Of a stretch of 64,000 nt of DNA, positions 9,445 to 49,250 are shown in pieces; the first letter of the stretch is position 1; each line of letters opens with the position of its first letter. The notes beneath the pieces are model-generated. The model did not search any database, was not told where the DNA came from, and was given only the letters and a program-made list of their open reading frames with translations. This DNA is from a virus. Location: positions 1 to 64,000 of the IMG/VR virus record IMGVR_UViG_3300050821_003619. One strand, 5' to 3'. A program made the translations under genes and the position numbers.

Positions 9445-11112
9445 CTACTGGTTAATTATCTTTACTTGCCACTGAGGAATCTTCTCTTGCGTGAACATTG
9501 TGCTAGAATTTGCTTTATCCGATGCAAGTTTCATTAAGTAGAAGTGTCGTGCCAATGGGTCAAGAGTCTTTGCATGCTCTTCAACCTCTTGTTCTCGTGG
9601 CTTTTTGCGGCCAGCTAACTGACCGTACAGTCCGTATCTAAATCCGTCATAGCAGTCGTCGCCTTTGGCATTGACCTTAAGTACGTCATCCATAAGGTCA
9701 GGATCACGCATAAGTGCTGGAATAGATCGGATGATATCTTTACAATTATCTAGAATTACCAATTCACCGTTCTTCAGCATGTTATACATCAACGCTGCTG
9801 AACCTATACGATCCATGGTAGCTCTAGTTACTGCTGGTAAACCTACTACTCTTAATTCTCTTGAATACTCATCTGCAGGGCTATGTGCTGTTACTTGCTT
9901 AGAAAACTTTTCGTGAGAAAAGTAAATAGCTTTAGGAACTACTTCCATACCGTTAGGAAGCTTGCACATCTGCTTTAGGATAGAAGCCCATTCTTTGTGG
10001 GTCTTTCCTCCTGTCAGAACCATCTCTTTGAAACAAACTGTCTTAAGTTTATAATCGCCGTTTACCAACTTCACCATTGCTTTGGTGAAGAAATAAGCTG
10101 CGTTATAGTGACCACCCATAGACCAGTCTTGTGATGCCCATACCGGCTGGTACTGTTGCCATATGATGGCGTCTGGGTCCTCTCTTAAATTGATTACATG
10201 GTAATCCTCAGAGAACACATCAAAATATTGACCCTCTACTACTCCATCCAAACCAAGCAAAAGCTTATCGCGCTTTGCTTTTGGCATGCTGTTAAGACGG
10301 GAAAGTATAGCCGGGTCGCGTGCTAGCAATTTTAAATTGTCAAGTACTGTAGAGCGTTGGTATGCGTAAGCTTTTGGATCGTAGATAAGTCTCCACTCAC
10401 CAGCTTCCAGCACCCACCATGCTCCATTTTCGTCTTTACGTGCTTCCTCTGGTCGCTGCCATGGCTCTTTCTGCACGAATACTGTTCTGTAGTATTCATA
10501 ATGTGGACCGAGAGGGTTGGTGCAACCAACAATACACGGAATGGGCATGTGCCCATGAGCATTAGGCAAACAGGATGCATTAACTGTATTACGAGAATAT
10601 AGCATCATCCATGCTTCTGGTGAGAACTGACCACATTCGTCAACCAAGATGCCGGGATAAGCTTGTCCTAAGTACTGTTCAATATCTCTCTCTTTATTGT
10701 TCTGGCAATGACCAAACACAACGCGAGAGCCGTTAAAAAAAGTTGCTACGTGGCTTGTAGGGTTATACGTGTAAAGCTCTGGAGGAACGAAAGCCTTAAA
10801 ATCGGCAATAGCTCCACTTTCTAATTCCTTAAACGTACGTCTCAAAACCAATATGTCGCATTTTTCCCATGCTAAACAGTAGTTAATAACCAAGTACATT
10901 AACCAACCGCTAGTTTTACCGGATCGAATACCACCAACAGATAGACATTGAGGAGCTACAGGTAAATGGTAAATAATTCCATCTACCGATGTAGGACGAA
11001 TAAGTTCTGTCTGTTTAGGTTGGAACTCAAAAATCTTATTTAGATTTAGGGTGCCATCAGCATTCAAATATGCCGGTCTCGCCTTATCCTCAGTTGGTAC
11101 TTTGCGGGGCAT
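9445..11112 (-). CDS. terL: Terminase large subunit
   Basis: 555 residues, normal length. ATPase half: Walker A-type P-loop GGIRSGKTSG (about 61-70), a later FGHCQNNKERD segment, and a Walker B with catalytic acid, GILVDECGQF (about 154-163). Nuclease half: an RNase H-like acidic residue in WASQDWSMGGHYN (about 328-340) and later acids in DDVLKVNAKGDDCYDGFRYG (about 480-500). The enzyme cuts concatemeric DNA and pumps it through the portal using ATP. It is followed by small head genes and the portal in the same operon. ATG at 11112 sits 10 nt after the neighbouring gene. Confidence 0.9.
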   Translation of the reverse strand: MPRKVPTEDKARPAYLNADGTLNLNKIFEFQPKQTELIRPTSVDGIIYHLPVAPQCLSVGGIRSGKTSGWLMYLVINYCLAWEKCDILVLRRTFKELESGAIADFKAFVPPELYTYNPTSHVATFFNGSRVVFGHCQNNKERDIEQYLGQAYPGILVDECGQFSPEAWMMLYSRNTVNASCLPNAHGHMPIPCIVGCTNPLGPHYEYYRTVFVQKEPWQRPEEARKDENGAWWVLEAGEWRLIYDPKAYAYQRSTVLDNLKLLARDPAILSRLNSMPKAKRDKLLLGLDGVVEGQYFDVFSEDYHVINLREDPDAIIWQQYQPVWASQDWSMGGHYNAAYFFTKAMVKLVNGDYKLKTVCFKEMVLTGGKTHKEWASILKQMCKLPNGMEVVPKAIYFSHEKFSKQVTAHSPADEYSRELRVVGLPAVTRATMDRIGSAALMYNMLKNGELVILDNCKDIIRSIPALMRDPDLMDDVLKVNAKGDDCYDGFRYGLYGQLAGRKKPREQEVEEHAKTLDPLARHFYLMKLASDKANSSTMFTQEKIPQWQVKIINQ

Positions 11113-13857: not shown

Positions 13858-13934
13858 TGGGTGCGGGAGCGAGAATCGAACTCGTCCATGTGATGCTTAT
13901 GAGACATCCGTAGCCACCAGACTACGTTCCCGCA
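13858..13934 (-). tRNA. tRNA-Met/Ile (anticodon CAT)
   Basis: Full cloverleaf with encoded CCA. Anticodon loop CTCATAA; canonical elbow (G18G19 and TTCGATT T-loop). Position 1-72 is a T-A pair, so it is not a typical initiator tRNA; elongator Met, or Ile with a modified C34, fits. Confidence 0.85.
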
Positions 13935-14190
13935 ATTTATACTCAATTATCCTGTGACAGTTAGCACACAATAGTATGCACTTCTTTAATTCCTCTAAAA
14001 TGCTTTCTCTACTATGTCTAAAAATTCCTGCACTAAGATTAAATCTTTTTGTGTCTGGGTTTACATGGTGAAAATCCATAACATACGATGGGAATTTATT
14101 GCCGCATCTGTTACATGGTTTATTTTTATATGTATCCAGCCACTCTCTTCGTTTCTTTATTGCCTTCTTAACTGTGCTATACGTGCTCAT
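13897..14190 (-). CDS. HNH endonuclease between tRNA genes
   Basis: 97 residues from ATG 14190. Zinc/HNH pattern: CNRCG, DFHHVNPDTK, then LLCANCHRIIEYKL. The gene runs into the downstream tRNA: the last 38 nt, including the TAA stop, lie in the tRNA-Met gene, and the stop codon is formed by the anticodon loop (CATAA). The upstream ribosome binding site is only an A/G-rich run. It is probably a selfish element lodged in the tRNA array. Confidence 0.75.
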   Translation of the reverse strand: MSTYSTVKKAIKKRREWLDTYKNKPCNRCGNKFPSYVMDFHHVNPDTKRFNLSAGIFRHSRESILEELKKCILLCANCHRIIEYKLRERSLVATDVS

Positions 14191-14266
14191 CTTTTCTCTT
14201 TTCCGCAGAAAGATGAACAAGTGCGTCCGCAACCACCTGAGTTTTATCGTCTCAGGAACGTCAAAA

Positions 14267-14342
14267 TGGGGTGAGCAGTAGGATTCGAACCTACATAAGC
14301 CAATTTAGAAGATTGGTGCACGGTCCCTTATGCCATGCTCAC
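14267..14342 (-). tRNA. tRNA-Arg (TCT)
   Basis: Acceptor GTGAGCA/TGCTCAC, anticodon loop CTTCTAA, TTCGAAT T-loop, encoded CCA. Confidence 0.92.
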
Positions 14343-14349
14343 GTAAAAT

Positions 14350-14427
14350 TGGTCGGCGCGGGAGGATTTGAACCTCCATATACTCGCGTCCAAGGCGAGG
14401 GGGTTAGCCAGATTACCCAACACACCG
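14350..14427 (-). tRNA. tRNA-Pro (TGG)
   Basis: Anticodon arm CTCGC-CTTGGAC-GCGAG, T-loop TTCAAAT, encoded CCA. The acceptor stem has two G-T wobbles. Confidence 0.9.
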
Positions 14428-14442
14428 AAAATTGTCTCATTA

Positions 14443-14662
14443 GGAACAGGCGAAAACAGAGCGGGAATCAACGTATTGACTACGCTGCTGTAGTTTCATC
14501 CGTGTATTCACCCTAAAGTATCGCCCGGAGGTGATTACTGTGAGTGACGGCTACAGGCTTCCCTAGCATTTTTAGACGTGCCTAGCGTTCCATACGGAGT
14601 TGACTGCCACCGAAGTGTCAGTGGTTTGCGTCATCAAGTATGAAGTATCTGTTTTCTACGCC
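14443..14662 (-). ncRNA. Candidate Y RNA 1 (long form)
   Basis: Bounded by the shared elements of this family: 5' GGCGTAG, an 8-bp terminal helix GAAAACAG / CTGTTTTC, ATACTTC inside it, and 3' GCCTGTTCC. About 185 nt of further hairpins lie inside (for example CAC-TTCG-GTG, TCACC/GGTGA). In vertebrate and bacterial Y RNAs, as I recall, Ro60 binds a conserved bulged terminal helix of this kind. It lies 340 nt downstream of the Ro60-like gene (15003-16319). The interior has no tRNA-like T-arm, unlike candidate 2. Confidence 0.6.
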
Positions 14663-14685
14663 ATAATGAAAATTTATTAGATGCA

Positions 14686-14802
14686 GGAACAAGCGGTCAC
14701 AGAGATTTTAGCGCTCTGCCACTAAGCTACGGAGACCGAAGTCTCCGGTGGGAGTCGAACCCACGCCTCTTCATTAGCAGTGAAGTAACTGTGTCCTACG
14801 CC
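14686..14802 (-). ncRNA. Candidate Y RNA 2 with a full tRNA-like domain (YrlA-like)
   Basis: Same outer elements: GGCGTAG, helix GGACACAG/CTGTGACC (one mismatch), TTACTTC, 3' GCTTGTTCC. The interior is a circularly ordered tRNA: anticodon arm CTTCA-CTGCTAA-TGAAG, T-arm GTGGG-TTCGACT-CCCAC, 7-bp acceptor CGGAGAC/GTCTCCG closed by a TTCG tetraloop, then the D-arm. As I recall it, this is the architecture of bacterial YrlA Y RNAs, whose module mimics a tRNA. The closed acceptor means it cannot be charged as it stands. The anticodon-like triplet is GCT (Ser); a normal tRNA-Ser(GCT) also exists at 16846. Confidence 0.75.
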
Positions 14803-14823
14803 ATGCAATCTAAACTTAAAATT

Positions 14824-14895
14824 TGGTCGCCCCGCTGAGAGCAACCTCAGCCACCCTCCCCAATGGGAGTCGTGCCGCACTTACACCACAGAGCG
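14824..14895 (-). tRNA. tRNA-like, irregular (Pro TGG-like?), possible pseudogene
   Basis: Acceptor CGCTCTG/CGGGGCG (two wobbles) and encoded CCA are fine, but the anticodon loop is 6 nt (CATTGG) and the T-loop is 6 nt (GTTGCT), each one short of normal. Identity uncertain. Confidence 0.45.
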
Positions 14896-14905
14896 AACTC
14901 ATCGT

Positions 14906-14986
14906 GGGAACAAACGATTACAGAGATTATAAGCTCGTATTAGGAGCTTCTCTTGTTAATGGTAAGAAGTAACTGTAATCTACGCC
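14906..14986 (-). ncRNA. Candidate Y RNA 3 (short form)
   Basis: GGCGTAG, perfect 8-bp helix GATTACAG / CTGTAATC, TTACTTC, 3' GTTTGTTCCC. Interior: a 6-bp hairpin AAGCTC/GAGCTT and an irregular CTTCTT hairpin. It begins 16 nt downstream of the Ro60-like gene, so the two are probably co-transcribed. Confidence 0.65.
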
Positions 14987-15002
14987 ACACAAACTTTATA
15001 AC

Positions 15003-16319
15003 TTATTCGTTTTCGTAAGCCTGAATCCAATTTACTACAGATTCCGACCATCCGTCAAGGTGGCTCCATTTTCCGTATCCGATACCGTTCTGATAAGAAG
15101 CCACATTGATCACGTATCCTACACCGTTAGGTGTAGATACTGTCTGATGCGATTGCTCATCAGTAACGATGATGATACGGTCGTAACCACGGGCATCAGC
15201 TACTCTTTTCGCTGATTCCGTGTTGGTTGACCCGTGGCTTGTAGCGTTCTTAATTGCATCTCGAAGCGCAAAACCTCTACGGGCTGGAACCAAAACGGGA
15301 GAATTTGAAAACGAAAGAACTTCTACGTCTTCACAAATCTCACGAAGGAGAATAGCCAGAGCACAAGCCGCATCACTGCGGTCGATCTCACTCTTTGCCG
15401 AAACTGGGGTACCGTACATGCTACCAGAGTTATCTACAAGAAGAATCGTCTTGCCCTTTAGCTTAGGCATCTTCTCCAATGCCTTGAACATAGCCTGCTC
15501 TAATTCAGGCTCTAGGTCTGGGGCATACTTCGCCGCAGAAATGAATCTGAATGGCAGCACTCTGCTCACATCAATCTTTCTCAAGGCGCTCTTGATCAGC
15601 GTCTTGCTTACCCCAGACTGCTCCATATTGCGAAGGTTACGCAATAGAGCCAACGCTCCAAGCTTCTCTTCTTCGATCAGTCGCGTAAAGGTTTCACCCT
15701 TGTCAGCGCCTCCTGAGAGAGCAACTTCCCACGTATCTGGCGTCTTCAATTCGTTATTGACAACCTTCTTGAAAAGCTTTTCCTGTTTCTTATTCTCAGG
15801 CTTAGCGTGAGAAAGGAAAAGAACATCGCGCAGCTTTACTGCACCGTCACGGTTGTACTTAGCAAGTGCATACTCTTCGAACTTACCGAAGGCTCGCGCC
15901 AATCCACGCTTACTCTGCGCTGATAAAGGCTCCTTGCCGTCTTTCCAATAGATTGCCACGTACTCAGTCAACTCATCTGGGCGCTGAATTACGCGTTCCA
16001 GAAGTTCCGCTACGTACTGACGCTCAGTCACTTTTGGGTGACGGGCCAGTTCACGCGCTAACAATAGAGGTACGTGACGTAGCTTCATTTCTTCTCTCGC
16101 CTTAACAGCGATGTCAGCTACGGTTTTGCCGGGAAGCGAGTGCACCAGCGTCTTAATACGCTCTGCGATTGCCTGCCCGTCTTCATAAAATTGGTCTTCC
16201 CAAAGCATGCACGCCATTACTGAGCGCTCTAATTCTTTTGCTTTGGTGATTTTCTTTGCAACTGCACCTTCATGTGTGAAGATAGGTGCAGACTTTACTG
16301 CTCTGTTTAGGGTAGCCAT
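15003..16319 (-). CDS. rsr: Ro60/Rsr protein (TROVE domain plus vWA domain)
   Basis: 438 residues from ATG 16319, with AGGAG 5 nt before it. The N-terminal two thirds is the helical-repeat TROVE ring: HSLPGKTVADIAVKAREEMK, then RHVPLLLARELARHPKV and KRGLARAFGKFEEYALAKYN are classic segments. The C-terminal third is a von Willebrand A domain with the MIDAS motif DNSGSM and later TDEQ. Ro proteins bind misfolded RNAs in the ring and Y RNAs on its outer face, and in bacteria tether exonucleases such as PNPase. The gene sits inside the tRNA array with five candidate Y RNAs around it, three of them immediately downstream. The MIDAS residues look intact. Confidence 0.9.
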   Translation of the reverse strand: MATLNRAVKSAPIFTHEGAVAKKITKAKELERSVMACMLWEDQFYEDGQAIAERIKTLVHSLPGKTVADIAVKAREEMKLRHVPLLLARELARHPKVTERQYVAELLERVIQRPDELTEYVAIYWKDGKEPLSAQSKRGLARAFGKFEEYALAKYNRDGAVKLRDVLFLSHAKPENKKQEKLFKKVVNNELKTPDTWEVALSGGADKGETFTRLIEEEKLGALALLRNLRNMEQSGVSKTLIKSALRKIDVSRVLPFRFISAAKYAPDLEPELEQAMFKALEKMPKLKGKTILLVDNSGSMYGTPVSAKSEIDRSDAACALAILLREICEDVEVLSFSNSPVLVPARRGFALRDAIKNATSHGSTNTESAKRVADARGYDRIIIVTDEQSHQTVSTPNGVGYVINVASYQNGIGYGKWSHLDGWSESVVNWIQAYENE

Positions 16320-16363
16320 AAACACTCCTGAGTCAAATTTATACTTCTACTGCCGAACAAAAT

Positions 16364-16439
16364 TGGCATGAGATGCAGGATTCGAACCCGCACGATTCGT
16401 TTTGGAGACGAACATGCTGCCGTTAAACATCAATCTCAT
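16364..16439 (-). tRNA. tRNA-Trp (CCA)
   Basis: Acceptor ATGAGAT/ATCTCAT, anticodon loop CTCCAAA, G18G19 with TTCGAAT, encoded CCA. Confidence 0.92.
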
Positions 16440-16442
16440 ATA

Positions 16443-16518
16443 TGGAGCGAAGCACGAGATTTGCACTCGTTCCGTTTGGTTGGAAGCCAAACATGCTGCT
16501 GTTAAACACCAGCCTCGC
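16443..16518 (-). tRNA. tRNA-Gly (TCC), altered elbow
   Basis: Anticodon loop CTTCCAA. The D-loop is AACAGCAG where tRNA-Trp next to it has AACGGCAG, and the T-loop is TGCAAAT: A18 with G55. Encoded CCA. Confidence 0.88.
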
Positions 16519-16519
16519 G

Positions 16520-16593
16520 TGGAGCGAACTGAGAGAATCGCACTCTCGCCTAGTCGTTGGCAACGACCGGTTCTACTACTAAACTAAGCTCGC
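16520..16593 (-). tRNA. tRNA-Gly (GCC), altered elbow
   Basis: Anticodon loop TTGCCAA; D-loop AGTAGTAG (A18), T-loop TGCGATT (G55); encoded CCA. Confidence 0.88.
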
Positions 16594-16664
16594 TCAAGTA
16601 GCCGAAGGCGACACCCAACGACATCTGCGGGGAATTACAACGCTGAATCAGCTACTAAATAAAA
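16594..16664 (-). ncRNA. Unclassified structured stretch between tRNA genes
   Basis: Ends pair as AGTAGCT / GGCTACT and an inner hairpin GCTGA/CAGC is present. No CCA and no standard tRNA arms. Could be a decayed tRNA or a small RNA. Confidence 0.25.
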
Positions 16665-16741
16665 TGGCGACCTGTATGGGATTCGAACCCATGATCTGTC
16701 CCGTGACAGGGGACTGGGGACAGCCACTCCCCTAACAAGCC
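16665..16741 (-). tRNA. tRNA-Asp (GTC)
   Basis: Anticodon arm GTCCC-CTGTCAC-GGGAC, canonical TTCGAAT T-loop, encoded CCA; two G-T wobbles in the acceptor stem. Confidence 0.9.
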
Positions 16742-16742
16742 G

Positions 16743-16836
16743 TGGACGAGAGTGCGAGATTCGAACTCGCGGCCCCTTTCATCAAGGAAGCGGCGGTTTT
16801 CAAGACCGTTGCATTAATCCGCTCTGCCAACTCTCG
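16743..16836 (-). tRNA. tRNA-Ser (TGA)
   Basis: Class II with a long variable arm; anticodon loop CTTGAAA; acceptor CGAGAGT/ACTCTCG; canonical elbow; encoded CCA. Confidence 0.92.
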
Positions 16837-16845
16837 GTTTCAAAC

Positions 16846-16938
16846 TGGATGAGAGTAAGGGATTCGAACCCTTGGACCCCATTGCTGGGCATCACATGTT
16901 TAGCAAACATGCTCGATAAACCACTCTGACAACTCTCA
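16846..16938 (-). tRNA. tRNA-Ser (GCT)
   Basis: Class II; anticodon arm CATGT-TTGCTAA-ACATG; canonical elbow; encoded CCA. Confidence 0.92.
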
Positions 16939-17037
16939 ATAAATTTTGTGAGGCTGAGAGGTAACGAATGCTCTCAATTAAGTTTTAACGTTCATGCTTA
17001 CGCAATTTACGGCGCTACCGTACAACACCTCTAAACT
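16939..17037 (-). ncRNA. Unclassified structured stretch
   Basis: Contains TGAGAG/CTCTCA and AGAGGT/ACCTCT pairings and CGGTAGCGCCG. No CCA end and no recognisable anticodon arm. Possibly a decayed tRNA. Confidence 0.25.
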
Positions 17038-17113
17038 TGGTCACTCATGCGGAAGTCGAATCCGCGTCACTTCCTTGAGAGGGAAGTATCCTAAGCCACT
17101 AGACGAATAAGTG
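17038..17113 (-). tRNA. tRNA-Glu (CTC)
   Basis: Anticodon arm CTTCC-CTCTCAA-GGAAG; canonical elbow (GTGGCT, TTCGACT); encoded CCA. Confidence 0.9.
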
Positions 17114-17169
17114 ATAGATGTGGATTTCGCAGTGCTGCCCACATCGGCCTGCACTCGGCCTTTGCAAAA

Positions 17170-17244
17170 TGGAGGTCCCACAGGGAATTGCACCCTGATC
17201 TAAAAGTTCGTAGCTTTTCATCCTATCTGTTGAACGATAGAACC
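17170..17244 (-). tRNA. tRNA-Arg (ACG), altered elbow
   Basis: Anticodon arm AAAAG-CTACGAA-CTTTT; D-loop AACAGATAG (A18), T-loop TGCAATT (G55). A34 would need deamination to inosine for normal decoding. Between this gene and tRNA-Glu(CTC) lies only a GATGTGG/CCACATC hairpin (about 17115-17142). Confidence 0.85.
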
Positions 17245-17253
17245 TCATAAAAT

Positions 17254-17320
17254 CGGTGCCGCAGAAACTTATTGCTTTTCTTTGTACTTCAGCATTGAGC
17301 AACATCGGTTACCCTGCGGC
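17254..17320 (-). ncRNA. tRNA-like element with CCG end
   Basis: Perfect 7-bp end stem GCCGCAG/CTGCGGC, one overhanging A, then CCG in place of CCA. Only 67 nt, and the arms do not fold as a standard tRNA. Probably a decayed or reshaped tRNA. Confidence 0.35.
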
Positions 17321-17327
17321 TAAAATT

Positions 17328-17371
17328 TGGGTGGGTTTTTTACGGTCTTCTCAGAATCCAATACCCACCCC
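17328..17371 (-). ncRNA. CCA-tailed mini-hairpin
   Basis: 8-bp stem GGGTGGGT/ACCCACCC with a loop near 26 nt; the 3' strand ends in CCCA followed by AATTTT, the same spacer as after the tRNAs. Far too short for a tRNA. Confidence 0.35.
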
Positions 17372-17391
17372 ATCTTCAAGATTCATAAATT

Positions 17392-17467
17392 TGGTGTCTC
17401 GTGCGGGATTCAAACCCGCGTCAAAAGCTTGAAAGGCTTCCATCCTAGATCACTAGACGAACAAGAC
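17392..17467 (-). tRNA. tRNA-Glu (TTC), altered elbow (A19-U56)
   Basis: Anticodon loop CTTTCAA. The D-loop reads AGTGATC (A19) and the T-loop TTTGAAT (T56): the usual G19-C56 pair is changed to A19-U56. Encoded CCA. Confidence 0.88.
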
Positions 17468-17468
17468 A

Positions 17469-17543
17469 TGGCTCCTACCGCTGGATTCGAACCAGCACCC
17501 TACGCATTAACAGTGCGCTATCCTGCCGTTAGACCAGATAGGA
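17469..17543 (-). tRNA. tRNA-Asn (GTT)
   Basis: Anticodon arm GCGCA-CTGTTAA-TGCGT; D-loop AACGGCAG and T-loop TTCGAAT are canonical; encoded CCA. Confidence 0.92.
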
Positions 17544-17558
17544 ACATTACAATTAAAT

Positions 17559-17646
17559 TGGTGCACGCTGATGGATTCGAACCACCAATAGCTCTTAGAG
17601 CCGGGAGGGTTACAGCCTCCTGCAATAGCCGTTATGCGAAACGTGC
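17559..17646 (-). tRNA. tRNA-Tyr (GTA)
   Basis: Class II with variable arm; anticodon arm GGAGG-CTGTAAC-CCTCC; canonical elbow; encoded CCA. Confidence 0.9.
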
Positions 17647-17653
17647 ATTTAAA

Positions 17654-17728
17654 TGGTGACCACTGGAGCGCTCGCATCTCCGTCCACGGGGTTTCAATCC
17701 GTTGCTATGCTATCTCAGCTAAGAGGCC
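17654..17728 (-). tRNA. tRNA-Phe (GAA), altered elbow
   Basis: Anticodon loop TTGAAAC; D-loop GATAGCAT (A18), T-loop TGCGAGC (G55); one mismatch in each of the acceptor, anticodon and T stems, so it is the weakest of the assigned set. Encoded CCA. Confidence 0.7.
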
Positions 17729-17742
17729 ATAAAATTTATTCA

Positions 17743-17799
17743 CGGGAACAAACGTGTACGGTGTATTTTCATCCAAAGAAGTAACCGTACACAACACCA
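17743..17799 (-). ncRNA. Candidate Y RNA 4 (minimal form)
   Basis: Perfect 8-bp helix GTGTACGG / CCGTACAC with TTACTTC inside and 3' GTTTGTTCCC, as in the other members. The 5' flank reads GGTGTT where the others have GGCGTA. Only about 23 nt lie inside the helix, so this would be a Y RNA reduced to the Ro-binding stem. Confidence 0.5.
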
Positions 17800-17807
17800 C
17801 GCAAATA

Positions 17808-17881
17808 TGGAAGCCCCGCAAGGATTTGCACCTTGGTTAGAAAGGTCAAAGCTTTCCGTCCTGCTCTTGAACGACAGGGCT
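17808..17881 (-). tRNA. tRNA-Gln (TTG), altered elbow
   Basis: Anticodon arm GAAAG-CTTTGAC-CTTTC; D-loop AAGAGCAG (A18), T-loop TGCAAAT (G55); encoded CCA. Confidence 0.88.
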
Positions 17882-17889
17882 ATAAAAAT

Positions 17890-17967
17890 TTGAGGCAGGA
17901 TTTACATACGTTGCAGTTCCATTATCCAACGTAAGACCTAAATACCGAATGGATGCGGTTGCCTCAA
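17890..17967 (-). ncRNA. Unclassified three-way-junction RNA in the array
   Basis: 8-bp closing helix TTGAGGCA/TGCCTCAA, one arm ACCG/CGGT and one 7-bp arm TACGTTG/CAACGTA. No anticodon arm, no T-arm and no CCA. Similar length to a tRNA but not one. Confidence 0.4.
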
Positions 17968-17970
17968 AAC

Positions 17971-18044
17971 TGGTAGGCAAGGAGTGAGTTGCACACTCAT
18001 TTCACTCTAATCAGGAGTGCTGTCTGCTGTTGACGTACTCGCCT
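17971..18044 (-). tRNA. tRNA-Ile (GAT), altered elbow
   Basis: Anticodon arm CACTC-CTGATTA-GAGTG; D-loop AACAGCAG (A18), T-loop TGCAACT (G55); encoded CCA. Confidence 0.9.
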
Positions 18045-18045
18045 A

Positions 18046-18131
18046 TGGTCCGAAAGAAGAGAGTCGAACTCTTATGCATTTACTGCGGCAGTTTTTGAGA
18101 CTGCTGTGTCTGCCTGTTCCACCACTCTCGG
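18046..18131 (-). tRNA. tRNA-Leu (CAA)
   Basis: Class II; anticodon arm GCAGT-CTCAAAA-ACTGC; D-loop with AGGCAG and T-loop TTCGACT, canonical; encoded CCA. Confidence 0.92.
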
Positions 18132-18140
18132 ATTTAAAAT

Positions 18141-18225
18141 TGGTCTCGAAGATGGGACTCGCACCCATACGCCTGACGGCAGAAGTTTTTAAGACTTCCG
18201 TGTCTGCTAATTCCACCACGACGAG
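18141..18225 (-). tRNA. tRNA-Leu (TAA), altered elbow
   Basis: Class II; anticodon arm GAAGT-CTTAAAA-ACTTC; D-loop AATTAGCAG (A18), T-loop TGCGAGT (G55); two acceptor mismatches; encoded CCA. Confidence 0.85.
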
Positions 18226-18227
18226 AT

Positions 18228-18303
18228 TGGCTGGCCGTCAAGGACTTGCACCTCGACCATTCGGGTCAGAGCCGAACGTTCTGCTATTAAAAACTAACAG
18301 CCA
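18228..18303 (-). tRNA. tRNA-Gln (CTG), altered elbow
   Basis: Anticodon arm TTCGG-CTCTGAC-CCGAA; D-loop AATAGCAG (A18), T-loop TGCAAGT (G55); encoded CCA. Confidence 0.88.
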
Positions 18304-18312
18304 ATAAAAATT

Positions 18313-18389
18313 TGGAGTACGTTGCAGGATTCGAACCTGCGCCTAGACGGGTTGCAGCCGTCCGCGTTTAGCCTCTTCGCCAAACGTAC
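18313..18389 (-). tRNA. tRNA-Cys (GCA)
   Basis: Perfect acceptor GTACGTT/AACGTAC; anticodon arm GACGG-CTGCAAC-CCGTC; canonical elbow; encoded CCA. Confidence 0.92.
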
Positions 18390-18390
18390 A

Positions 18391-18465
18391 TGGAGGGCAC
18401 GCGAGAAATCGAATCTCTTTCACGCGGGGTCACAACCCGGTGGCTACACCAGTTGCTACGCGCCC
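18391..18465 (-). tRNA. tRNA-His (GTG)
   Basis: Anticodon loop TTGTGAC on a 4-bp stem; D-loop ACTGGTG and T-loop TTCGATT, canonical; encoded CCA. Confidence 0.85.
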
Positions 18466-18471
18466 TAAAAT

Positions 18472-18550
18472 TGGTACACCGGGTTGGATTCGCACCAACG
18501 GTAATCCTTCTTTGTAAGAGAAGGGGCTTCGTCTCCTTGCCCACCAGTGT
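18472..18550 (-). tRNA. tRNA-Val (TAC), altered elbow
   Basis: Anticodon arm CTTCT-CTTACAA-AGAAG; D-loop AAGGAGACG (A18), T-loop TGCGAAT (G55); encoded CCA. Confidence 0.87.
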
Positions 18551-18553
18551 ATG

Positions 18554-18590
18554 GTGCAATCCTATAGATTGCACAACCGTATTTCTACGG
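18554..18590 (-). other. Two short hairpins between tRNA-Val and tRNA-Thr(CGT)
   Basis: GTGCAAT/ATTGCAC (7 bp, 7-nt loop) next to CCGTA/TACGG capped by a GAAA tetraloop on the minus strand. Possibly a small RNA or processing spacer. Confidence 0.35.
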
Positions 18591-18602
18591 GGAGTCGTAA
18601 AT

Positions 18603-18680
18603 TGGAGCCTAAGACTGGGAATCGCACCCAGTACAACCTCTTTACGAGAGAGGTATTCTAGCATCTTAAATTACTCAGGC
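18603..18680 (-). tRNA. tRNA-Thr (CGT), G55
   Basis: Acceptor GCCTGAG/CTTAGGC; anticodon arm CCTCT-CTCGTAA-AGAGG; T-loop TGCGATT (G55). The D-loop (AAGATGCTAG) does not show a clean A18G19. Encoded CCA. Confidence 0.8.
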
Positions 18681-18695
18681 ATAAAACTCTATTTA

Positions 18696-18784
18696 GGGAA
18701 CAAGCGAATACAGGAAAGGCACCAGCCCTTGCTACGGAATCGAACCGCTCGCTCTATATGCAAGAAGTACCTGTTTTCTACGCC
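18696..18784 (-). ncRNA. Candidate Y RNA 5 with a partial tRNA-like domain
   Basis: GGCGTAG, helix GAAAACAG/CTGTATTC (one mismatch), GTACTTC, 3' GCTTGTTCCC. Inside is a T-arm-like GCGG-TTCGATT-CCGT and a 6-bp acceptor-like stem AAGGGC/GCCTTT closed by TGGT, but no D-arm: a shortened version of candidate 2. Confidence 0.6.
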
Positions 18785-18795
18785 ACTAAATAAAC

Positions 18796-18870
18796 TGGAG
18801 CCACTGGTAGGAGTTAAACCCACACACGCCAAGGTACAAGCTTGGTGCACTGTCATTATGCTACAGTGGC
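18796..18870 (-). tRNA. tRNA-Thr (TGT), altered elbow (A19-U56)
   Basis: Perfect acceptor GCCACTG/CAGTGGC; anticodon arm CCAAG-CTTGTAC-CTTGG; D-loop AATGACAG (A19), T-loop TTTAACT (T56); encoded CCA. Confidence 0.88.
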
Positions 18871-18871
18871 A

Positions 18872-18945
18872 TGGAGCCCAAGGATGGAATCAAACCATCG
18901 TTGCTCCCTTACCAAGGGAGAGTTCTATCACTGAACTACAAAGGC
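18872..18945 (-). tRNA. tRNA-Thr (GGT), altered elbow (A19-U56)
   Basis: Anticodon arm CTCCC-TTGGTAA-GGGAG; D-loop AGTGATAG (A19), T-loop TTTGATT (T56); two acceptor mismatches; encoded CCA. Confidence 0.85.
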
Positions 18946-18956
18946 AATAAAAATAA

Positions 18957-19272
18957 TACTAACTCTGTAAGCAGGATTCTGTCAATGGAATATTTTCCAC
19001 CGGACAATCATTCGTCTTAGCTTTCAACCCGATGGCTCCCCGAGCAGGATCACTGCCATCCTATTTGAAATTGCTGCCCCTAGAGATTGCCCGTTTCACT
19101 CCCACTCAAGGGATTCGTCACTGTTGCTCTTATCGTAGCCTCGCGGCTCCCGCAGCTTCCACGGTAGGGTGCTCTTTGCAGTCCTGACTTTCCTCACCTT
19201 AAGATGAAGCGCTCCGCAAGGTATTAACCACACAGTGCTTGATCCGATAAGGCGCGATTGTCTGAGTTAGTA
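18957..19272 (-). ncRNA. rnpB: RNase P RNA (bacterial A-type-like)
   Basis: About 316 nt. P1 is TACTAACTC (19264-19272) pairing with its complement at 18957-18965. In order on the minus strand: CAGACAATCG (P2 5' side), GAGGAAAGTCAGGAC (conserved region I / P4), GGGAGTGAAACGGGCAA, TTTCAAATAGG, ACGAATGATTGTCC (region IV / P2 3' side) and ACAGAATCCTGCTTA (region V / P4 3' side). These match bacterial rnpB landmarks one after another. RNase P RNA is the ribozyme that trims tRNA 5' ends, so the phage appears able to process its own array. It is shorter than most cellular versions. I did not see an obvious GGTAA-type CCA-binding loop. Confidence 0.9.
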
Positions 19273-19278
19273 TAAAAT

Positions 19279-19368
19279 TGGTATGGAAGATACTCTAGGA
19301 GTAGTCACCTTTGACTTTCAGCCTGCTCGCTACATCCACGTCACTTTTGCAGGATATCGGAACATCTT
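19279..19368 (-). ncRNA. Unclassified CCA-ended RNA
   Basis: Between RNase P RNA and tRNA-Leu(TAG). Stems CCTGC/GCAGG, AGTCA-AAGG-TGACT, TACTC-CTA-GAGTA and a closing AAGAT/ATCTT; the 3' end is CCATACCA followed by ATTTT. Not foldable as a tRNA. Confidence 0.4.
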
Positions 19369-19373
19369 AAAAT

Positions 19374-19460
19374 TGGTGCGCCTAGAGGGACTTGCACCCC
19401 CACGGCTGTTAACCACTGGAGTCTAAATCCAGCGCGGCTGCTAAATTACGCCATAGACGC
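19374..19460 (-). tRNA. tRNA-Leu (TAG), altered elbow
   Basis: Class II; anticodon arm CTGGA-TTTAGAC-TCCAG; D-loop AATTTAGCAG (A18), T-loop TGCAAGT (G55); encoded CCA. First tRNA of the array. Confidence 0.9.
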
Positions 19461-48856: not shown

Positions 48857-48865
48857 AGTTACGCA

Positions 48866-49250
48866 CGTATGAGGTAATCGCAAAGCCTATCGGACACGGG
48901 TTCGACTCCCGTCGCCTCCACCAAGCTACTCACGATGAATACCGGCTGACCCCAGCGTCTAGCGCGGAATCACGGCTAGGCCCGAGACGAATGCATCGTT
49001 ATCGGGAAAGTCGAGGATAATTCTCGTCTGGGTGAGTAGCTTAATGGGGGCGTCACGGCTTCGACGGTGGGAACTGAGGGATTTACTGACGTGCCGTTAT
49101 CGTACGCCGTTCGTTATACGGAGTGCAAAAACACAAATGCTAAGACTAACAAGTCTCGCAAGGCCTATGGCATGTTCTTCGGTGGAAACACTGTTGGACA
49201 GCTTTCTGTAGCTGCCTAAAAGGGTGGGAGCCTCACAAGGGCTCCCTTCC
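48866..49250 (+). ncRNA. ssrA: tmRNA, circularly permuted (two-piece) form
   Basis: The 3' piece comes first: T-arm CGGGTTCGACTCCCG and CGCCTCC-A-CCA ending at 48923. A 122-nt spacer follows, closed by AGCTACTCAC / GTGAGTAGCT. The 5' piece then starts at 49046 (GGGGGCGTCACGGCTTCGACG); GGGGGCG pairs with CGCCTCC. The tag frame ends LSVAA-stop at 49217-49219, an end typical of proteolysis tags. TGAGG (48870) can pair with CCTCA (49231) to hold the pieces together. The usual GCA resume codon at 49125 is not in the tag frame, which is odd. tmRNA rescues stalled ribosomes. Confidence 0.85.

What the first reader, a model, noticed from the sequence alone, without database searches (positions are those of the whole stretch)
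14443..18784. Phage Ro60/Rsr protein with five candidate Y RNAs inside a tRNA array
Five separate minus-strand RNAs (14443, 14686, 14906, 17743, 18696) share an 8-bp terminal helix whose sequence differs in every copy but stays paired (GAAAACAG/CTGTTTTC, GATTACAG/CTGTAATC, GTGTACGG/CCGTACAC), with the same flanks: GGCGTAG before, WTACTTC inside, GYYTGTTCC after. A full TROVE + vWA gene sits among them, 16 nt from one copy. Bacterial Ro proteins pair with Y RNAs, and YrlA-type Y RNAs carry a tRNA-like module; candidate 2 has precisely that, with the acceptor stem closed by a TTCG loop. What looks unusual is the number and range of interiors: from bare helix (57 nt) to tRNA mimic (117 nt) to a 220-nt multi-hairpin form.
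Basis: partly seen in the sequence, partly recalled or inferred. Interest (0 to 1): 0.92.

Follow-up and report, generated by a model that had tools for sequence, protein, structure and literature searches.

The report
Phage Ro60 with five Y RNAs
An uncultured bacterial virus carries its own Ro60 RNA-chaperone gene together with five small partner RNAs (Y RNAs), one of them a complete but circularly rearranged tRNA with an anticodon loop, which makes a little-studied RNA quality-control or RNA-decay machine of phages testable in isolated phages that carry the same parts.

Summary
Five minus-strand RNAs surround a TROVE+vWA (Ro60/Rsr) gene in a tRNA array of a 109-kb virus record; the record has exactly five copies. 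A second outer stem (5 bp, bulged U, GG/CC) also changes in every copy yet pairs in 24 of 25 cells. A search of viral contigs for the RNA alone, blind to protein and to pairing, found 109 loci with the paired module. 91 contain a Ro60 gene in the fetched stretch, and all 138 RNA copies there lie on its strand. These are Y RNAs of a clade shared by phages and bacterial chromosomes (Bradyrhizobium, Acidobacteria).

Copy 2 and 45 relatives are complete circularly permuted tRNAs, including an anticodon arm that Rfam's YrlA consensus lacks: un-permuted in silico, 45 of 46 are called as tRNAs. Other copies range from bare helix to T-arm-only to a 231-nt form. Five is high but not unique (relatives have up to six).

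Phage Ro60s and phage Y RNAs are known, and a phage Ro60 structure is solved. I call this a new variant of a known kind. The mechanism (Y RNAs gate the Ro60 ring and tether effectors) is inferred. No transcription or binding data exist for this virus.

The parts
15003..16325 (-). Ro60/Rsr gene: TROVE ring + vWA domain with complete MIDAS residues (D296, S298, S300, T365, D387 of the ATG-started protein); ATG start at 16319
   Evidence: Pfam TROVE E 9e-17, vWA_Ro60 E 8e-5; fold match to solved Ro60s; conserved columns
14438..14668 (-). Y RNA copy 1, 231 nt, multi-hairpin interior; outer stem CATTA/TAATG, inner helix GAAAACAG/CTGTTTTC
   Evidence: folds better than shuffles, z -2.4; no relative of the interior found outside the same virus
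14681..14808 (-). Y RNA copy 2, 128 nt, complete circularly permuted tRNA: anticodon arm CTTCA|CTGCTAA|TGAAG (anticodon GCU), T arm, acceptor stem sealed by TTCG, D arm
   Evidence: YrlA 30.4 bits full length; un-permuted it is called tRNA-Ser(GCU); family covariation
14902..14992 (-). Y RNA copy 3, 91 nt, two small hairpins inside; 10 nt downstream of the Ro60 stop codon
17740..17804 (-). Y RNA copy 4, 65 nt, bare-helix form (23-nt interior)
   Evidence: relatives by sequence in L046, L004, L178 and others
18692..18790 (-). Y RNA copy 5, 99 nt, interior with a T-arm-like element (GCGGTTCGATTCCGTAGC)
   Evidence: relative in L004 (72% over 98 nt)
14267..19460 (-). tRNA array in which the Ro60 gene and the five Y RNAs are embedded (ARAGORN tRNA calls, plus two further Rfam tRNAs at 17657-17728 and 18606-18680)
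18952..19273 (-). Virus-encoded RNase P RNA, class A, inside the same array (neighbour, not proven part of the Ro60 system)
   Evidence: Rfam RF00010 148.8 bits, E 4e-48, full model length

Best explanation
This is a virus-encoded Ro60-Y RNA particle. The TROVE ring binds each of the five RNAs through the same terminal module: outer stem, bulged U, GG/CC, internal loop CGUA//GYYUGUU, inner 8-bp helix, UACUUC. The RNAs therefore compete for one site and act as interchangeable gates over the ring's RNA-binding surface. The interiors are the variable effector ends. The bare form (copy 4) only gates. The permuted-tRNA form (copy 2) offers a tRNA-shaped handle that tRNA-binding proteins or an exonuclease such as host PNPase can hold, so the ring can feed structured or misfolded RNA to it. 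In the infected cell this would serve turnover or quality control of structured RNA, with the virus's many tRNAs as likely clients. Shown here: the gene, the five RNAs, their structure and their linkage to Ro60. Inferred: binding, gating, tethering and clients.
For: Protein: Pfam TROVE/vWA; predicted fold (pLDDT 86) matches phage phiLo Ro60, Xenopus Ro and D. radiodurans Rsr 2nvo. RNA: covariation in the five copies and in 138 distinct viral modules, whose outer stem pairs in 92% of cells against 46% when re-dealt, and only in the register with the bulged U. Linkage: RNA-only search gave 109 loci, 91 with Ro60, 138/138 on the same strand; pattern matches whose helix does not pair had Ro60 in 8 of 40. 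Census of Ro60 loci: 125 modules on the Ro60 strand, 3 on the other. Bacterial loci: 53 against 3. tRNA mimic. Known mechanism of the family: Y RNA tethers Rsr to PNPase and gates it (reviewed in PMC4726728 and PMC8394870).
Against: No transcript, binding or phenotype data for this virus. The virus record encodes no RNase PH-fold nuclease, RNA ligase or RtcB, so any effector must come from the host or is unknown; the record may be a fragment. PNPase tethering is shown only for D. radiodurans/Salmonella-type Rsr; the D. radiodurans protein is only about 17% identical in the fold alignment. Copy 2 fails the curated YrlA cut-off. The interiors of copies 1 and 3 have no assigned function.
Confidence: 0.6

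Rival explanations
1. The tRNA-like Y RNAs are decoys. Ro60 holds sealed, non-chargeable tRNAs with intact anticodon loops so that host anticodon nucleases or tRNA-binding defence proteins act on them instead of on working tRNAs.
For: A 7-nt loop on the UACUUC stem occurs in 52 of 75 tRNA-length copies (shuffled interiors 17, max 27), with U33 in 42, purine 37 in 48 and A38 in 41 of 52. The acceptor end is closed, so the RNA cannot be charged. Phages do use tRNAs against tRNA-targeting defences (PMC10264068, PMC11555353). Competitive inhibition of an anticodon nuclease was proposed for Salmonella YrlA (PMC7790460).
Against: Anticodons vary widely, with no single target. Bacterial chromosomes carry the same RNA. 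Most short copies lack a clear arm. A loose sponge would not need Ro60. No nuclease assay exists.
Confidence: 0.2
2. The RNP matures or checks the virus's own tRNAs: Ro60 binds misfolded precursors from the array, and the viral RNase P RNA and Y RNAs form one tRNA-production cluster.
For: Y RNAs, Ro60, about 25 tRNAs and an RNase P RNA share one strand and one 5-kb block.
Against: Across relatives only 21 of 120 modules have a same-strand tRNA within 300 nt, and loci with Y RNAs have no more tRNAs than loci without. The tRNA context is therefore not general.
Confidence: 0.15
3. The RNP is a virion or early-infection component that acts on host RNA at entry.
For: The crAss001 TROVE gene is transcribed 0-10 min after infection (PMC8375218), and a Y-like module lies next to it (L019). 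A remotely Rsr-like protein of Listeria phage CKA15 was found in particles (PMC12282133).
Against: The P100 counterpart scores as DUF7788/DUF2828, not TROVE, so transfer to this family is weak. No virion data for this family.
Confidence: 0.1
4. The five RNAs are decayed tRNA genes or a dispersed repeat without function.
For: Copies 2 and 5 contain tRNA arms, and the copies sit among tRNA genes.
Against: Both stems covary in the copies and in 138 relatives; the loops are invariant; the strand and Ro60 linkage is near-absolute.
Confidence: 0.02

Closest known systems
Bacterial and phage Y RNAs next to Ro60/Rsr, incl. YrlA (Rfam RF02553; Chen et al. 2014 RNA 20:1715, not held here, known from citations and memory)
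   Same: Terminal Ro-binding stem with a conserved internal loop (3' strand UUGU), permuted tRNA-like interior with T arm, acceptor hairpin and D arm, gene next to Ro60, often more than one per locus
   Different: All members scanned score 30-48 bits against a cut-off of 69. Here the 5' internal-loop strand is shorter, a bulged U is conserved, and an anticodon arm is present that the RF02553 consensus lacks; PMC8394870 describes only D, T and acceptor arms. Bare-helix and T-arm-only forms accompany it.
Thermus phage phiLo Ro60 (PDB 9kop, 9l5y)
   Same: Phage-encoded TROVE + vWA protein; best solved relative by sequence (E 4.5e-24) and by fold
   Different: About 25% identical; much more distant than the phage/bacterial clade found here (about 50-64% identical)
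Deinococcus radiodurans Rsr-Y RNA-PNPase (RYPER)
   Same: Ro60 ring plus Y RNA is the proposed working principle
   Different: PNPase tethering not testable here; no PNPase-type gene in the virus record
Ro60 loci of Caulobacter phage CcrColossus, Xanthomonas phage 10KY502B, Brevundimonas phage Kabachok, crAss001 and bacterial chromosomes such as Bradyrhizobium
   Same: TROVE genes related to this one with the same RNA module beside them
   Different: Fewer copies (1-3) per locus; the RNAs are unannotated or, where they overlap a call, annotated as tRNAs

Membership tests
Ro60/Rsr (TROVE) proteins | TROVE domain above curated cut-off | tested here: met
   PF05731 61.8 bits, cut-off 23
Ro60/Rsr (TROVE) proteins | HEAT-repeat ring plus C-terminal vWA domain | tested here: met
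   Predicted model matches solved Ro60s with query TM 0.64-0.77 over the whole length; the vWA_Ro60 model itself is below its cut-off (23.1 of 27.7)
Ro60/Rsr (TROVE) proteins | MIDAS metal-site residues | tested here: met
   D296, S298, S300, D387 invariant and T365 nearly invariant in 33 sequences
Ro60/Rsr (TROVE) proteins | Binds Y RNA and misfolded RNA ends | not testable with these tools
   needs a binding assay
Bacterial Y RNAs | 5' and 3' ends form a stem with a conserved internal loop (Ro-binding module) | tested here: met
Bacterial Y RNAs | Encoded next to a Ro60 gene | tested here: met
   window; 91 of 109 loci found by RNA alone
Bacterial Y RNAs | At least one per genome with a tRNA-like domain | tested here: met
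   copy 2
YrlA, Rfam RF02553 | Score above gathering cut-off (69 bits) | tested here: not met
   copy 2 30.4 bits; relatives 32-48 bits
YrlA, Rfam RF02553 | T arm, acceptor hairpin and D arm in permuted order | tested here: met
RYPER (Rsr-Y RNA-PNPase) | Y RNA tethers Ro60 to PNPase | not testable with these tools
   no viral PNPase-type gene; host unknown

The most novel reading that the evidence does not exclude
Phage Ro60 is a holder for sealed, circularly permuted tRNAs with working-looking anticodon loops, used as decoys or regulators of tRNA-directed host defence; the several Y RNAs per phage form an evolvable set of baits of different size and anticodon.
Probability: 0.15. Interest if true: 0.85.

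Novelty: new variant of a known kind. Interest (0 to 1): 0.55.

Why it matters
Ro60 is a conserved RNA chaperone and human autoantigen, but why phages carry it is unknown. This work gives a precise RNA signature (outer stem, bulged U, CGUA//GYYUGUU, UACUUC) that links a large group of viral Ro60 genes (over 400 candidates in IMG/VR) to partner RNAs. It shows that the tRNA-like partners are complete permuted tRNAs with an anticodon arm, and points to isolated phages (CcrColossus, Xanthomonas phage 10KY502B, crAss001) in which function can be tested.

Tried and rejected
Rfam gathering-level search for Y RNA: no hit, only the sub-threshold YrlA match.

Single-sequence folding: weak z-scores for copies 2 and 5, so covariation was used instead.

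Listeria phage P100/CKA15 as transcript evidence: its protein scores as DUF7788/DUF2828 and my scanner finds no such module there; one of the candidate regions looks like ROOL RNA, so the published transcript abundance is not used as support.

Viral versus bacterial copy number: no significant difference with a strict motif (p 0.25).

The idea that the system depends on a tRNA array: not general.

Search of the genome for RNA ligase, RtcB, RNase PH domain and RNase P protein: none.

Anticodon arm in short copies: 12 of 36 against a shuffled mean of 5, max 13, so not established.

Full report
1. Setting. The window is the first 64 kb of a 109,250-bp virus record. A terminase-like protein at 9445-11112 has only about 25-27% identity to isolated phages, so the virus is far from cultured ones. 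Minus-strand positions of about 14.2-19.5 kb hold a dense tRNA array, a Ro60 gene and the five RNAs of the finding. A near-identical contig exists (L003), and L004 is the nearest distinct relative by Ro60 protein (63-64% identity).

2. The protein. The gene at 15003-16325 encodes 440 aa (438 from the ATG at 16319) with TROVE (PF05731, 61.8 bits against a cut-off of 23) and a weak vWA. An AlphaFold2 model from 33 relatives (pLDDT 85.9) matches, in order, the phage phiLo TROVE protein and Ro60 dimer (9kop, 9l5y), then Ro autoantigen/Ro60 entries and D. radiodurans Rsr. All MIDAS residues are invariant or nearly so. It is a Ro60 protein. In a quick tree of 120 relatives the window sits among viral sequences. 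Forty of the 48 bacterial rows (Acidobacteria, Alphaproteobacteria) form one clade, and the remaining bacterial rows are scattered among viral ones (midpoint root, low support at many forks). Phages and bacteria thus share this Ro60 clade.

3. The RNAs. All five copies are real. The two parts together pair in 96% of cells, with 9 of 15 pairs changed on both sides; no shuffle of 500 reached the covariation score and all slid registers fail. Exactly five exist in the whole record.

4. Independent family test. Of 221 distinct matches, 158 have a paired inner helix. In fixed register the count is 146, against 19 (max 26) when 3' arms are re-dealt. The 109 loci with a paired module include 91 with a Ro60 gene in the fetched stretch, and all 138 copies there lie on the Ro60 strand. 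Of 40 loci whose match does not pair, 8 have Ro60. In 138 distinct modules the outer stem, never used for selection, pairs in 92% of cells against 46% re-dealt, and only when the U is bulged; that base is U in 128 of 138. Starting instead from Ro60 genes, a census of about 90 loci (viral and phage, plus the window) finds 125 modules on the Ro60 strand and 3 on the other, against about one false hit per 1.3 Mb in shuffled sequence. Bacterial chromosomal loci of the same clade show 53 against 3. The RNA is the partner of this Ro60 clade.

5. Interiors. Lengths cluster near 20-30 nt and 83-97 nt. Of 75 tRNA-length copies, 67 contain GGUUCRA, against 5 of 61 shorter ones. An alignment of 46 (A3, including copy 2) gives T arm, acceptor hairpin, D arm, inner helix and outer stem, with changes on both sides in 25 of 30 pairs. 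The stretch after UACUUC is an anticodon arm. The conserved UUC is its 5' strand; the loop has 7 nt in 52 of 75 (shuffled 17, max 27), with U33, purine 37 and A38 in the tRNA manner. The chain therefore enters a whole tRNA between D stem and anticodon stem, and the acceptor end is closed by a loop. Cutting that loop and joining the D stem to the anticodon stem in silico makes ARAGORN of 46 as tRNAs, against 5 without rotation and 25-36 with the anticodon arm shuffled; copy 2 becomes tRNA-Ser(GCU). At least some bacterial copies of the clade have the arm too, so it is not a phage invention. Copy 4 is a bare form. Copy 5 has a T-arm-like hairpin, a form seen elsewhere (L004, L024, L172). Copy 3 has two small hairpins. 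Copy 1 is a 231-nt form whose interior has no relative in the fetched loci outside the same virus.

6. How common. Five copies is near the top: L183 has six and L011 five.

7. Mechanism. From the family (PMC4726728, PMC8394870), Y RNAs bind Ro60, can cover its RNA-binding surface, and can tether an effector (PNPase in D. radiodurans). The anatomy here fits one shared docking module and interchangeable effector ends. I commit to gate-and-tether as most likely. The RNA-partner identity I hold at about 0.95; the tether/gate function in the infected cell is inferred, which is why the overall confidence is 0.6. The main rival, a decoy of anticodon nucleases, is made concrete by the anticodon arm. 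It is weakened by the variety of anticodons and the presence of the same RNA in bacteria.

8. What is known. Phage Ro60 and phage Y RNAs are not new. PMC12282133 cites Chen et al. 2014 for Y RNAs in diverse bacteria and mycobacteriophages. From memory that paper reports likely Y RNAs near Ro60 in more than 250 bacterial and phage species, with a tRNA-like one in each; it could not be read here. PMC8394870 describes the YrlA domain as D, T and acceptor arms, and the RF02553 consensus has no anticodon arm. Copy 2 and its relatives score 30-48 bits against RF02553, below its cut-off of 69. I therefore file them as Y RNAs, not as YrlA in Rfam's sense, and call the case a new variant of a known kind.

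Noticed in passing
window 18952-19273, minus strand: A virus-encoded RNase P RNA, class A (RF00010, 148.8 bits, E 4e-48, full model length, conserved core motifs present), inside the tRNA array. No similar DNA in 50,697 phage records and no RNase P protein in the record.
   Followed up: partly
window 48863-49219, plus strand: A permuted (two-piece type) tmRNA (RF04321, 92.8 bits) encoded by the virus.
   Followed up: no
L016 7173-7240 (CcrColossus) and L018 7792-7859 (Xanthomonas phage 10KY502B): GenBank features 'tRNA-Gln' and 'tRNA-Thr' overlap Y RNA modules; these appear to be Y RNAs annotated as tRNAs.
   Followed up: partly
L251 34073-34624, minus strand (Listeria phage P100): A ROOL-like RNA (RF03087, 86 bits, cut-off 99, E 1e-16) lies upstream of gp165; a permuted tRNA-like sequence lies just upstream of gp165. 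This bears on the proposal in PMC12282133 that the most abundant CKA15 transcripts are Y RNAs.
   Followed up: partly
window 13897-14232, minus strand: Small open frame between tRNA genes with an HNH-nuclease-like pattern (CNRCG..HH..CANCH), perhaps a homing endonuclease.
   Followed up: no
window 14267-19460, minus strand: tRNA genes are repeatedly followed by an AU-rich spacer (ACCAATTTT or similar), and the Y RNAs are flanked by like spacers; possibly a common processing signal.
   Followed up: no
L258 (JAOAJI010000043.1): A 4.9-kb contig labelled Candidatus Micrarchaeota carries this Ro60 clade and a Y RNA module; probably a mis-binned phage or bacterial contig.
   Followed up: no
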